In this document: piece after piece, positions 10,289 to 41,772 of the stretch
Numbering within the stretch: position 1 is the stretch's first letter
How the letters are laid out: every line of letters starts with the position of its first letter
DNA from: an uncultured Ruminococcus sp.
Lineage (GTDB): Bacteria > Bacillota > Clostridia > Oscillospirales > CAG-272
Length of the DNA stretch: 45,219 bases
NCBI GenBank assembly: GCA_902761695.1
Contig: CACWLT010000008.1
Span: 1 to 45,219 of the forward strand
Reading direction: 5' to 3'
The notes under the pieces: generated by a model
Told to the model about the DNA's origin: nothing
Seen by the model: the letters and a program-made list of their open reading frames with translations, nothing else
The model's database searches: none
Program-made: the position numbers and the translations under genes

Positions 10289-10672
10289 CCGGCGAAAACG
10301 CAAGTATGACAAGTCTTTCGAGGTAGTTATAGCCGCGGAATAAACCGTTTTGTTTCGTCTGTTCTCTATCGCGGTCTGTGTCATGCGCGTTTCGATCGCT
10401 GTTTGCGTCGCCTTTTTGGCAGAGCAAACCGTGAAATTCCATCTCTGATGGGATTTCACGCATGTTACAGCTGACGCAACGTGGTCCGCGCGAGGACCTG
10501 GGATACACAATCGATTTTCGATACAGACATGAGAGGACAAGTTATGCTCTCCGGCCAAGGAAACCCCCGCACGGGGGGAAACCTTCGGCCTGAGATGGTG
10601 TCCCCCCGTGCCTCCCGCCCTGAGTAGGGCTTATCTTGAAACGCGCAGCGTTTCTTTCCTAAAGAAAGGAGG
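10289..10672 (+). ncRNA. Family B structured RNA element, copy B1 (between mreC and mreD)
   Basis: This is a full copy, sense to the mre operon. In order it has a 5' segment shared with B4, GTTTGC...GCAAAC enclosing GCC/GGC, the hairpin GTGAAATTCCATC/GATGGGATTTCAC, GGTCC-GCGCGA-GGACC, and GGCC-rich DNA leading to the 11-bp stem GCACGGGGGGA/TCCCCCCGTGC. The 3' hairpin is GAAACGC-GCA-GCGTTTC. Just after it, CTTTC pairs with GAAAG next to the mreD AGGAGG. The stems match those of B2-B5 with changed bases. No convincing protein is encoded on either strand. Confidence 0.75.
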
Positions 10673-10681
10673 GCGGAGCTT

Positions 10682-11326
10682 ATGGCCTGGTTTTTTAAGA
10701 AAAACGACGCCTCGCCGCTGAACGCGGATCCGGGGATCACGGAGAAGAAGATCGATCTGCACAAGAGCGGGGAGACCGGGGGCCTGTTCCGTCTGCCGCG
10801 CATTGACACGGACATTCTCTGGCGGGTGCTGGTTTCGGCGGGGCTTCTGATTTTCTTCGCCCTTCTGCAGACCACCATTTTCGCGCGGTTCCGTCCCTTC
10901 GGCGCGGTGCCGGATCTGATGCTGCCCCTGGTGATTGCCATCGGCATGACGGAGCGGGAAAAATGGGGGGCGGTATTCGGCATCGCGGCGGCCTTCGTGA
11001 TAGAGTCCCTGGGAGGCGCGCCGGTTTCCCTGCTGGCGCTGCTGTACATGCCGGCGGGGTATCTCTCCGGGATTCTGACCATCGAGATGTTCCGGGACTC
11101 CTTTGCGGTGCGGCTTTTATTCACGGCGGTGGGCTGCGCGCTCCACATGCTGTTCACGCTGGCGACGCTGGCTTTGACGGTGGAGGGATTCACCTTCCTC
11201 AGGGGGCTGACGGGGGCGGTGCTTCCGGAGTTCCTTTCGTCCATGGTCTTTGCCGCTCTGCCCCATCTGCTGGCGAAGGCGGCACTGCGGGTCTTCCACA
11301 AGCCCAGGGAGGAGAGGGTCGAGTGA
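10682..11326 (+). CDS. mreD: Rod shape-determining protein MreD
   Basis: This 214-residue protein has a charged cytoplasmic N-terminus of about 45 residues (KKNDASPLNADPG, then acidic/basic stretches), longer than usual. About five membrane helices follow, with the MreD-type LLIFFALLQTTIFARFRPFGAVPDLMLP region split over residues 58-85. MreD is the integral membrane partner of MreB and MreC. Its ribosome site AAAGGAGG begins immediately after the B1 3' hairpins. The end overlaps the next gene by four bases (GTGA). Confidence 0.88.
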   Translation: MAWFFKKNDASPLNADPGITEKKIDLHKSGETGGLFRLPRIDTDILWRVLVSAGLLIFFALLQTTIFARFRPFGAVPDLMLPLVIAIGMTEREKWGAVFGIAAAFVIESLGGAPVSLLALLYMPAGYLSGILTIEMFRDSFAVRLLFTAVGCALHMLFTLATLALTVEGFTFLRGLTGAVLPEFLSSMVFAALPHLLAKAALRVFHKPREERVE

Positions 11327-12297
11327 GAATTGCTCTGGCTCCCATGGCGGGGTACACGGACAGCGTTTTCCGGCGGATCTGCGGGGAAATGGGCGCGGAC
11401 TACGCCGTGAGCGAGATGATCTCCGCCGCCGCGCTGGTCATGAAGGACCGGAAAACGGCGGAGCTGGCCAAGATCGGAGAGGGAGAGCCCCCGGTGGTCC
11501 TCCAGCTCTTCGGACACGATCCCGCGCTTATGGCGGAGGCGGCGGAGCTCCTTCTGTCCGGGGACTATCCGGGCTGCTCCTACGCTTCCCCGCCGGCGGG
11601 CATCGACATCAACATGGGCTGTCCCGTGCGGAAAATCGTCTCGAACGGAGACGGGTCCGCGCTGATGCTGGATCCTCCCCTTGCTGCCCGGATTACGGCG
11701 GCGGTGAAGGAGGTCTGCGCGCGGCGGGGCGTTCCGCTGTCCGTGAAGTTCCGGATGGGCTGGGACTCCCTGACGGCGCCGGATTTCGCGCGTGCGGTAG
11801 TTTCTGCCGGTGCGGACCGGATCACCCTCCACTGCCGGACCCGGGAGCAGATGTACATGCCCTCGGCCGATCCTTCCGCGGCGGGGGCGGTATTCGCGGC
11901 GGTGAAGGAGGAGATCCTCGGCGGAAAAACGGCCTTCTGCGGCAACGGGGACATCGATTGCCCGGAGGCGGCGGAGCGGTATTTTATAAACGGATGCACC
12001 GAGGCGGCAGTGGGACGGGCGGCGCTGGGCAATCCCTGGCTGTTCCGGCAGCTGAAGGATCCGGCGGGGTTTGTTCCGCCGGGGAAGGACGAGATCCGGG
12101 CGCTGGTGATCCGCATGGTGGAGGACGTGGTCCGGGAAAAGGGCGAGATCCGGGGCGTGCGGGAATCGAGAAGCCGGGCGGCGTACTTCATCCGGGGACT
12201 GCGGGGGTCCGCCGCACTTCGGGACAGTCTGAACCACGCGGACACCCTCTCCGATTTCGTTCGTCTTCTGGACGGGTCCGAGGCGCTGCGGGACTGA
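11323..12297 (+). CDS. dusB: tRNA-dihydrouridine synthase (DusB-like)
   Basis: This 324-residue FMN enzyme reduces uridines in tRNA D-loops. It shows LAPMAGYTDSVFRRIC at the N-terminus, QLFGHDP, the catalytic-Cys block INMGCPVRKIVSNGDGSAL, SVKFRMGW, HCRTREQMY and FCGNGDI, then GRAALGNPWLF before the C-terminal helical domain. The GTG start at 11323 overlaps the mreD stop, with GGAGGAG about nine bases upstream; the longer track-like frame upstream is within mreD. Placement after mreD suggests co-transcription. Confidence 0.93.
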   Translation: MRIALAPMAGYTDSVFRRICGEMGADYAVSEMISAAALVMKDRKTAELAKIGEGEPPVVLQLFGHDPALMAEAAELLLSGDYPGCSYASPPAGIDINMGCPVRKIVSNGDGSALMLDPPLAARITAAVKEVCARRGVPLSVKFRMGWDSLTAPDFARAVVSAGADRITLHCRTREQMYMPSADPSAAGAVFAAVKEEILGGKTAFCGNGDIDCPEAAERYFINGCTEAAVGRAALGNPWLFRQLKDPAGFVPPGKDEIRALVIRMVEDVVREKGEIRGVRESRSRAAYFIRGLRGSAALRDSLNHADTLSDFVRLLDGSEALRD

Positions 12298-12404
12298 GGA
12301 CCGGAATACAGCTGCGTGTCATCCATTGCGTCAGTGCCTGTCCGGCGGGAATGAACCCGGGACGGACGGCGGCCACAATACAATTATCAGCGGGGAAAAC
12401 GATC

Positions 12405-40840: not shown

Positions 40841-40843
40841 AGT

Positions 40844-41428
40844 TTACCCCCGATTTGCGATGACTTTATCCACGAGGCCGTACTCCCGGGCCTCCTCGGC
40901 TGTCATGAAGTTGTCCCGCTCACAATCTGCGGCGATGACCTCCACAGGCTTGCCGGTGTTCGCGGCCAGGATCCGGTTGAGGCGGTCCTTGATTTTCAGG
41001 ATATGCTCGGCCTGGATCTGGATGTCGGTGGCCTGCCCCTGGGAGCCGCCGGAGGGCTGATGGATCATGATTTCGGAGTTGGGGAGGGCCAGCCGCTTGC
41101 CCTTCGCGCCGGAGGACAGCAGGAACGCCCCCATGGACGCCGCCATGCCCACGCAGATGGTGGAGACGTCGCACTTGATGAAGTTCATGGTGTCATAGAT
41201 GGCCAGACCTGCGGTGACGGATCCGCCGGGTGAATTGATATAGAGGGAGATATCCGCGTCGGGGTCCTCGGACTCCAGATAGAGGAGCTGGGCCACCACC
41301 AGGGACGCGGTGACGTCGTTGACCTCGTCGGCCAGAAAGATAATGCGCTCATTGAGCAGGCGGGAATAGATGTCGTAGGACCGCTCGCCGTGATTGGTCT
41401 GCTGCACGACCATAGGAACCAATGCCAT
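40844..41428 (-). CDS. clpP: ATP-dependent Clp protease proteolytic subunit ClpP
   Basis: This 194-residue serine peptidase has the triad Ser98 (GMAASMGAFLL), His123 (IMIHQPSGG) and Asp172. It forms tetradecameric barrels with ClpX or other Clp ATPases for regulated proteolysis. AAAGGAGG precedes the ATG. Upstream, element B5 separates it from tig, with which it normally forms an operon; the element tail can pair with part of this ribosome site. Confidence 0.98.
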   Translation of the reverse strand: MALVPMVVQQTNHGERSYDIYSRLLNERIIFLADEVNDVTASLVVAQLLYLESEDPDADISLYINSPGGSVTAGLAIYDTMNFIKCDVSTICVGMAASMGAFLLSSGAKGKRLALPNSEIMIHQPSGGSQGQATDIQIQAEHILKIKDRLNRILAANTGKPVEVIAADCERDNFMTAEEAREYGLVDKVIANRG

Positions 41429-41436
41429 GGGAAAAC

Positions 41437-41772
41437 CTCCTTTGTCTAAGGAAACAAACGCCTTGCGTTTATATGGAAGGAAACCCTACGGGTTTCCAAA
41501 TTATTAAATCCCGTTGCGCACGGGAGGCGCGGGGGAGGGACACCATCTCAGGCCGAAGGTGCCCCTCCCCCGAGGGTCCCCCTTGGCCGGGGAGCATAAT
41601 CCTGGCTGCTCTCCTCTAAATCCATACTTGATTGGATATCCCATGTCCTCGCGCGGACTGGTGGAGTCAGCCGAAACATGCGTGAAATCCCATCGGAGAT
41701 GGAATTTCACGGTTTGCTCTGCCGGGACGGCGACGCAAACAGCGATCGAAGCGCGCATTGGATTATGGGATT
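41437..41772 (-). ncRNA. Family B structured RNA element, copy B5 (between tig and clpP)
   Basis: Read on the minus strand it has GTTTGC/GCAAAC around GCCG/CGGC, GTGAAATTCCATC/GATGGGATTTCAC, AGTCCGCGCGAGGAC and the main stem GGGGGAGGG/CCCTCCCCC. Two 3' hairpins (GGAAACCC-GTA-GGGTTTCC and AAACGC-AAG-GCGTTT) are followed by GTTTCCTT and the clpP ribosome site. It is sense to the operon. Confidence 0.75.

What the first reader, a model, noticed from the sequence alone, without database searches (positions are those of the whole stretch)
10289..41772. Multi-copy structured RNA family (family B) with covarying stems
Six full or partial copies (10289-10672, 24677-24985, 32666-32940, 33030-33346, 36418-36872, 41437-41772) share a layout while stem sequences change in a paired way. 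The main stem is GCACGGGGGGA/TCCCCCCGTGC, GCACGAGGG/CCCTCGTGC, CACAGGGG/CCCCTGTG, CCGGGAG/CTCCCGG or GGGGGAGGG/CCCTCCCCC. The second hairpin is GTGAAATTCCATC/GATGGGATTTCAC or GATGAACTTCGTC/GACGGAGTTCATC. An inner stem is GCC/GGC, GCCC/GGGC or GCCG/CGGC. This is RNA-level conservation visible within one window. A U-G pair in four of five copies of the second hairpin fixes the transcribed strand. I cannot match it to a known RNA class.
Basis: seen in the sequence. Interest (0 to 1): 0.93.

Follow-up and report, generated by a model that had tools for sequence, protein, structure and literature searches.

The report
Scattered twin-armed structured RNA repeats
About a hundred copies of a several-hundred-base repeat sit between the genes of one bacterium, each keeping the same predicted RNA fold, including a knot-like contact, while its letters change in matched pairs; related species carry rewritten versions, often as back-to-back pairs, and the repeat likely spreads as a mobile element that would act as folded RNA when its neighbourhood is transcribed.

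Summary
In detail: all six copies exist and belong to a genome-wide intergenic family (92 sites, 0 in the reversed-pattern control). Paired stem changes are strong: 96.4% of cells paired in the 5' domain (slid controls 33-41%), 97.7% in the 3' domain (37-55%). A covariance model of the 3' domain found rewritten relatives across the genus; a second model found probable ones in another genus of the order. The main loop pairs with an upstream strand as a pseudoknot whose letters co-vary (0 of 200 permutations). Neighbouring arms lie back to back (19 of 19 subtype pairs here; 26 of 26 close neighbours in three relatives); in relatives the last hairpin has a terminator-like U run (66 of 77 arms). 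Placement and orientation differ between species, so it is a dispersing repeat, not a conserved gene leader. No Rfam match, own sigma-A-like promoter, target duplication or mobiliser was found. Best reading: a new structured, probably mobile intergenic repeat of the BOX/bcr kind. Transcription is untested; U-G asymmetry supports the proposed strand only in the 5' domain.

The parts
10289..10672 (+). Copy 1 (solo, type B): 5' junction domain 10381-10464, 3' domain 10549-10658; ends about 10 nt before the ATG of the gene called at 10682
24677..24985 (-). Copy 2 (type B, sense strand minus): 5' domain 24834-24918, 3' domain 24683-24792; its 3' end faces the stop codon of the gene called at 23252-24652
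   Evidence: no 3'-domain match on the syntenic contig of G018
32666..32940 (-). Copy 3 (subtype B', left arm of a head-to-head pair): 3' domain 32673-32801, B' motif 32848-32870; 3' end faces the start of a minus-strand gene
33030..33346 (+). Copy 4 (type B, right arm of the same pair): 5' domain 33040-33117, 3' domain 33202-33341
32666..33346 (.). Head-to-head B'-B pair, the twin-armed form; all 19 B' motifs found in the genome lie head to head with a B copy, 18 of them 170-174 bp and one 121 bp from its conserved 23-mer
36418..36872 (+). Copy 5 (type B with loop insertions): 5' domain 36522-36605, 3' domain 36734-36867
41437..41772 (-). Copy 6 (type B): 5' domain 41677-41760, 3' domain 41476-41592; abuts the ribosome-binding region of a clpP-like gene (name from my reading of the sequence)
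10549..10658 (+). Example of the 3' domain: pseudoknot strand GGCC, main hairpin with loop GGCC, small hairpin P7, terminal hairpin P8
   Evidence: structure counted; pseudoknot test

Best explanation
This is a family of dispersed intergenic repeats with a conserved, covarying multi-hairpin pseudoknotted fold that likely spreads as a protein-less (non-autonomous) mobile element and is predicted to act as folded RNA when read from neighbouring promoters. Shown: 120 and 143 3'-domain matches in the two fullest genomes, no copy spanned by a called gene here, paired stem changes, a covarying loop-upstream pseudoknot, head-to-head arms, and different placement and orientation at the same gene gaps in related species. 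Inferred: it moves by an unidentified factor acting in trans; transcription comes mostly from host promoters, so the repeat lies in leaders, trailers or spacers; there the terminal hairpin would stop or weaken transcription (a strong terminator by sequence in several relatives, a weak one in this genome), insulating neighbours and making insertions tolerable. Whether the pseudoknotted domain has a job of its own (binding a protein or the mobilising enzyme) is untested; its preservation through sequence rewriting suggests that selection keeps the fold.
For: Family size: 92 sites, 0 in control; 3'-domain model 120 matches in G000 and 143 in G002. Intergenic: 0 of 91 G000, 0 of 55 G002 and 0 of 23 G018 copies spanned by a called ORF. 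Fold: (97.8% of cells paired across 77 distinct distant arms, 24 of 26 pairs changed on both sides; that alignment was fitted to the model). Pseudoknot, in none of the models: mean helix score 14.58 against at most 13.60 (all arms) and 14.05 (within species), 0 of 200 permutations each. Pairs: 19 of 19 B' motifs, 26 of 26 close neighbours in relatives. Mobility: the clpP gap holds the repeat on the minus strand in G000, on the plus strand in G002 and G024, and gives no match in eight other relatives; beyond the gene before the 10289 copy G002 has it in the opposite orientation; the 24677 copy is absent from syntenic G018. Terminator: T run of 4 or more in 66 of 77 distant arms, 1 of 43 near arms. 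Outward promoters just outside the pairs: 17 of 40 sides, shuffles mean 0.66.
Against: No target-site duplication detected; no mobiliser identified, and only one transposase family was tested (PF01797: no match in G000, G002, G018, G024, G016; one weak match each in the carriers G004 and G022). Movement is inferred between species whose syntenic DNA is roughly 80-93% identical, where spacers turn over; one site (24677) is filled in the same orientation in G002. No transcript data. In G000 same-direction copies outnumber opposite ones between co-directional genes 43 to 18 (P 0.002), which a purely passive insert would not need; the bias is not significant in G002 (16:9) or G018 (7:6).
Confidence: 0.55

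Rival explanations
1. A multi-copy independent small RNA gene family: each arm is its own transcription unit, started inside the pair and ended by the terminal hairpin, acting in trans.
For: Arms diverge from a common centre and end in terminator-like hairpins in relatives; multidomain fold kept across species.
Against: No sigma-A-like promoter of 10/12 or better on either strand of the centre of 20 pairs (0 of 40, shuffles mean 0.22), and 1 of 69 forward inside G000 copies (0.3 expected); the terminal hairpins are nearly symmetric and could serve either direction; placement differs between species. Other promoter types were not tested.
Confidence: 0.2
2. A cis-regulatory leader (riboswitch-like attenuator) of many genes: fold plus terminal hairpin directly before the start codon.
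For: 3' ends often abut a start codon; in G000 48 of 78 copies with both neighbours resolved face a same-strand gene start (P 0.05), and 43 against 18 in co-directional gaps (P 0.002); sigma-A-like promoters pointing through the repeat are enriched upstream in G000 (5 of 69 against 0.8 expected), though 0 of 32 in G002 and 0 of 13 in G018.
Against: 30 of 78 copies face a gene stop; the clpP copy is not kept upstream of clpP in relatives and lies reversed in two; distant pairs often sit outside host promoters, which lie beyond the terminal hairpin.
Confidence: 0.12
3. DNA-level palindromes: inverted repeats kept paired by template-switch repair or by selection for cruciforms or single-stranded DNA transposition, with no RNA role.
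For: Stems are near perfect and whole hairpins are exchanged; extra short palindromes occur around the repeats; G-U does not exceed A-C in the cross-species 3' domain (10:11).
Against: The pseudoknot joins a loop to a separate upstream strand and still co-varies, which palindrome repair does not readily explain; an internal U-G or mismatch persists in the second hairpin and G-U exceeds A-C 26:6 in the 5' domain.
Confidence: 0.13

Closest known systems
BOX, RUP and SPRITE repeats of Streptococcus (PMC3049150, passages read)
   Different: Here the fold has a covarying pseudoknot and a terminal terminator-like hairpin, occurs as head-to-head arms, and is rewritten between species while the fold stays. 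No sequence relation was tested
bcr1-bcr18 repeats of the Bacillus cereus group (PMC3446304, passages read)
   Same: 18 families of intergenic repeats, some MITE-like, some with conserved secondary structure; about half of copies reported as expressed within 5' or 3' UTRs, operon spacers or ORF-less units
   Different: Different bacteria; the passages read describe no paired arms or pseudoknot; homology not tested
[quoted passage not shown] features as in the passages of PMC3049150)
   Same: No ORF, inverted arms, many dispersed intergenic copies, strong secondary structure
   Different: No target duplication found, no matching transposase known, arms are multi-domain, and most G000 copies have no recognised partner arm
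REP/RAYT elements (recalled)
   Same: Dispersed intergenic palindromes
   Different: The Y1 transposase family (link to REPs recalled) gave no match in G000, G002, G018, G024 and G016
Stem-loop repeat families of bacterial genomes (PMC2267715, abstract and outline read)
   Same: Survey reporting 92 families of stem-loop repeats; two thirds share a predicted fold and are intergenic
   Different: Forty genomes, published 2008; whether any resembles this family was not checked

Membership tests
Any Rfam 15 family | Score at or above the curated cut-off | tested here: not met
   Whole window: only tRNA-Ser; six loci with permissive filters: best E 0.47, below cut-offs
MITE | No coding capacity | tested here: met
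   0 of 91 G000 copies spanned by a called ORF; in the one long pair examined (L303) the longest stop-to-stop frame between the arms is 100 codons
MITE | Terminal inverted repeats | tested here: met
   26 of 26 close neighbours head to head in three relatives; 19 of 19 B' motifs in G000 head to head with a B copy. Most of the 92 G000 sites have no B' partner
MITE | Target-site duplication | tested here: not met
   Longest word shared by the two flanks of 20 pairs averages 3.9; mismatched flanks 3.57 on average, maximum 4.25. Ends are approximate and old duplications could be lost
MITE | An autonomous relative with the same ends | not tested
   Only PF01797 was searched
REP/RAYT | Y1 transposase in the genome | tested here: not met
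   PF01797: 0 matches in G000, G002, G018, G024, G016; G000 is 83% complete; one weak match each in carriers G004 and G022
Dispersed structured intergenic repeat (BOX/bcr kind) | Many intergenic copies with a common fold | tested here: met
Dispersed structured intergenic repeat (BOX/bcr kind) | Copies transcribed as part of UTRs or spacers | not testable with these tools
   No transcript data available here
Riboswitch or attenuator leader | Conserved place upstream of the same gene | tested here: not met
   clpP gap: reversed in G002 and G024, no match in eight others; one gene examined in depth

The most novel reading that the evidence does not exclude
A new order-level class of RNA-bearing mobile element: divergent twin pseudoknotted RNAs, each ending in its own terminator, whose fold (not sequence) is recognised by an unknown enzyme that copies or inserts them beside host promoters, so that up to more than a hundred copies per genome are rewritten together within each species while the architecture stays.
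Probability: 0.2. Interest if true: 0.87.

Novelty: new variant of a known kind. Interest (0 to 1): 0.62.

Why it matters
Many described dispersed repeats of bacteria are short palindromes or simple MITEs. Here a several-domain fold with a pseudoknot is kept at dozens to over a hundred copies per genome while its sequence is rewritten from species to species. That offers many natural variants of one fold for probing, a lineage in which to look for the mobilising enzyme, and a caution for annotation of such genomes: a structured element in a gene leader or spacer may be an inserted repeat rather than a gene-specific regulator.

Tried and rejected
Rejected: known Rfam class. REP/RAYT. Phage or plasmid cargo: no match to the 33030-33346 copy in 50,697 phage and 72,556 plasmid records, nor of the L370 and L346 elements in phages; one exact-pattern match in viral contigs (L193), not followed. 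Gene-specific leader. Target duplication. Strand from folding energy: plus strand more stable in 30 of 34, 27 of 29 and 52 of 77, but random window pieces gave 48 of 60, so uninformative. A generic scan for pseudoknots around P7-like motifs took in many unrelated places (740 cases; 42.7% with 4 bp or more against 34.4% shuffled) and was replaced by the model-based set; an earlier version of that test used 70 typed arms, with some hairpins misassigned (7.56 against 5.82, maximum 7.19, in 300 swaps). In one search the simple count of arms with 5 bp or more (46 of 68) did not exceed the permutation maxima (47 and 49); only the mean score did. In some searches the measure 'further standard pair types' was not exceptional against shuffles (247, 104 and 97 of 500 reached it). 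Own promoter: none found. Literature searches (listings, plus passages or outlines of three papers) showed no description of this repeat; the held library lacks most subscription journals and preprints.

Rows dropped: one search listed 83 of 100 copies (9 lacked the loop motif, the rest too short); one search used 63 of 170 extracted copies (the rest had insertions, lacked the loop or terminal hairpin, were cut or contained N); A1 used 110 of the 119 5' domains no longer than 86 nt out of 147 extracted, nine left out with no recorded reason, one of them the viral contig; A2 used 43 of 70 3' domains (longer alleles left out). One search used 131 of the 213 matches (those printed for G004, G012 and G022 and three of G015). 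Searches used 20 of the 26 pairs. One search scored only 10 candidates per genome with strict filters, so its counts are lower bounds. Single matches in G008, G005, G011 and G003 and two in G019 (E 1e-4 to 1e-5) are not counted as carriers.
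Full report
What was checked. All six carry the repeat; three lie on the minus strand. A conserved 23-mer of the 5' half occurs at 92 sites in the 3.66 Mb assembly (45 forward, 47 reverse, up to 3 mismatches) and the reversed control at none. A DNA search gave 55 matches while scoring 40 of 122 candidates. Rfam has nothing for it.

Anatomy in this genome. From 5' to 3' (my structure): a closing helix ATGC/GCAT around a small hairpin GCG/CGC, hairpin P1 (GTTTGC/GCAAAC, GTTTTC/GAAAAC or GTTTCC/GGAAAC) and hairpin P2; then a hairpin GTCC/GGAC and less certain short stems; then the 3' domain: a GGCC strand, the main hairpin whose loop contains GGCC, a small hairpin P7 and a terminal hairpin P8. 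On 110 5' domains 96.4% of cells are standard pairs and 11 of 31 pairs have changes on both sides, in 295 cells against 103 after shuffling; sliding the partners gives 33-41% paired. On 43 3' domains the figures are 97.7%, 16 of 30 pairs, 161 cells against 45, and 37-55%. In the pseudoknot helix one pair changes from G-C to A-U in four sequences, with no broken cell in the helix. Copies are related and whole hairpins are exchanged, so cell counts are not independent events, and the number of pair types was not exceptional against shuffles (247 and 104 of 500); the slid controls and the many distinct P2 alleles that nearly all pair carry the argument.

Twin arms. Nineteen copies of a sister subtype B' were found. 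All 19 lie head to head with a B copy, 18 of them 170-174 bp and one 121 bp from its 23-mer, as 32666-32940 with 33030-33346 in the window.

Relatives. The 5'-domain model finds copies in 3 of 25 genomes of the genus: G000 91, G002 71, G018 41. The 3'-domain model finds more: 15 of 25 genomes with any match, of which ten have 9 or more (G000 120, G002 143, G004 69, G018 68, G024 67, G012 66, G016 43, G022 42, G015 25, G010 9). A DNA search with one G000 copy had found five genomes of 59. Eighty-nine matches from seven relatives were aligned: 97.8% of cells paired against 43-57% slid, 24 of 26 pairs changed on both sides (this alignment was fitted to the model, which favours it). A model from that alignment, run on 394 genomes of the order with strict filters and ten candidates each, hit 8 genomes at 1e-5: the own one, one of another family and six of a single second genus. 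Five loci from three of those genomes also show an arm head to head nearby, several only at weak E-values (1e-3 to 1e-4).

Pseudoknot across species. The pseudoknot is in none of the models. In 68 distinct arms the strand just upstream of the main hairpin was compared with the loop region: GGCC/GGCC, GGTCG/CGACC, GCGCGGG/CCCGCGC, GAGCGG/CCGCTC, GGGCCGGG/CCCGGCCT and ACGCC/GGCGT are among the matches. The mean helix score is 14.58; no permutation of 200 reached it, across all arms (maximum 13.60) or within species (maximum 14.05). The plain count of arms with at least 5 bp (46) was not exceptional, and several G004, G022 and G015 arms show weak complementarity or a different register.

Ends and surroundings. 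In G004, G012 and G022 the 26 neighbouring arms closer than 1 kb, among 131 of 213 matches examined, are all head to head, with species-typical spacing (228-262, 204-208, 292-331 bp). P8 carries a T run of four or more in 66 of 77 distant arms but in 1 of 43 near arms, so it looks like an intrinsic terminator in those relatives and a weak one here. Outside P8 of 20 pairs, 17 of 40 sides have an outward sigma-A-like promoter of 10/12 or better within 220 nt (shuffles mean 0.66, maximum 3); none of 40 centre strands has one (shuffles 0.22). In G000 0 of 91 copies is spanned by an ORF; of 78 with both neighbours resolved, 43 lie along two same-direction genes, 18 against them, 12 between convergent and 5 between divergent genes; 13 were unresolved. 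The 43:18 bias has P 0.002; G002 (16:9) and G018 (7:6) do not show it significantly. The 3' end lies close to the next gene whether that is its start or its stop (median 110 and 98 nt from the main loop). Promoters pointing through the repeat occur upstream of 5 of 69 G000 copies (0.8 expected), but 0 of 32 in G002 and 0 of 13 in G018.

Mobility. At the tig-clpP gap (gene names from my reading) G000 has the repeat on the minus strand next to clpP; G002 and G024 have it on the other strand; eight other relatives and the short G018 contig end give no 3'-domain match. Beyond the gene before the 10289 copy, G002 has the repeat in the opposite orientation (that contig ends before the next gene). 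The 24677 copy and its neighbour repeat are missing in syntenic G018, whose 388-base gap holds 51 N and other repeat pieces, while G002 has a copy near there in the same orientation. No target duplication was seen, and the Y1 transposase gave no match in the five genomes named. So movement is inferred from placement, not from exact insertions.

Strand. Among distinct helix alleles G-U to A-C is 26:6 in the 5' domain, 10:7 and 10:11 in the near and distant 3' domains; an earlier count over all predicted helices gave 73:30. This favours the proposed strand in the 5' domain only.

Verdict. A real, well-supported structured repeat family, absent from Rfam 15 and not found in the papers searched, of the general kind of BOX and bcr repeats (passages), with unusual twin-arm, pseudoknot and terminator anatomy. 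Function as RNA and the mobilising agent remain inferred.

Noticed in passing
7266-7434 (-), 16068-16281, 23092-23232, 25087-25285, 30530-30744, 36272-36398 (-), 39434-39509: A second dispersed repeat family (CGCTGTACGTTACCCCGTGCTGCAC core), 43 matches with 40 of 100 candidates scored genome-wide; it adjoins the present repeat in the same arrangement at 24677-25285 and 36272-36872, is not hit by the 3'-domain model, and its 23092 copy is absent in syntenic G018.
   Followed up: partly
18198-18318: About 100 bp of intergenic DNA present here and missing at the syntenic place in G018:C122.
   Followed up: no
L340-L359, outside the terminal hairpins: Short palindromes (such as GCACC-TTC-GGTGC and GCCCC-GAA-GGGGC) joined by GAAGG-type links flank many elements in G004, G012 and G022.
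   Followed up: no
P7 region, for example L346 and L348: The P7 loop GCGCA is complementary to the UGCGC just upstream of P7, which would allow an alternative hairpin; possible switch, not tested.
   Followed up: no
P1 of many copies: Short P1 alleles contain CGAG facing CGAG, a tandem G-A mismatch motif (recalled as stable in RNA), replaced in other alleles by Watson-Crick pairs or by an internal loop with an extra stem.
   Followed up: no
L364: In a genome of the second genus (g118) a minus-strand arm occurs twice in tandem before the head-to-head partner.
   Followed up: no
L193: One viral-collection contig (5.3 kb) carries a copy whose second hairpin is of a G002 type; whether it is truly viral was not examined.
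   Followed up: no
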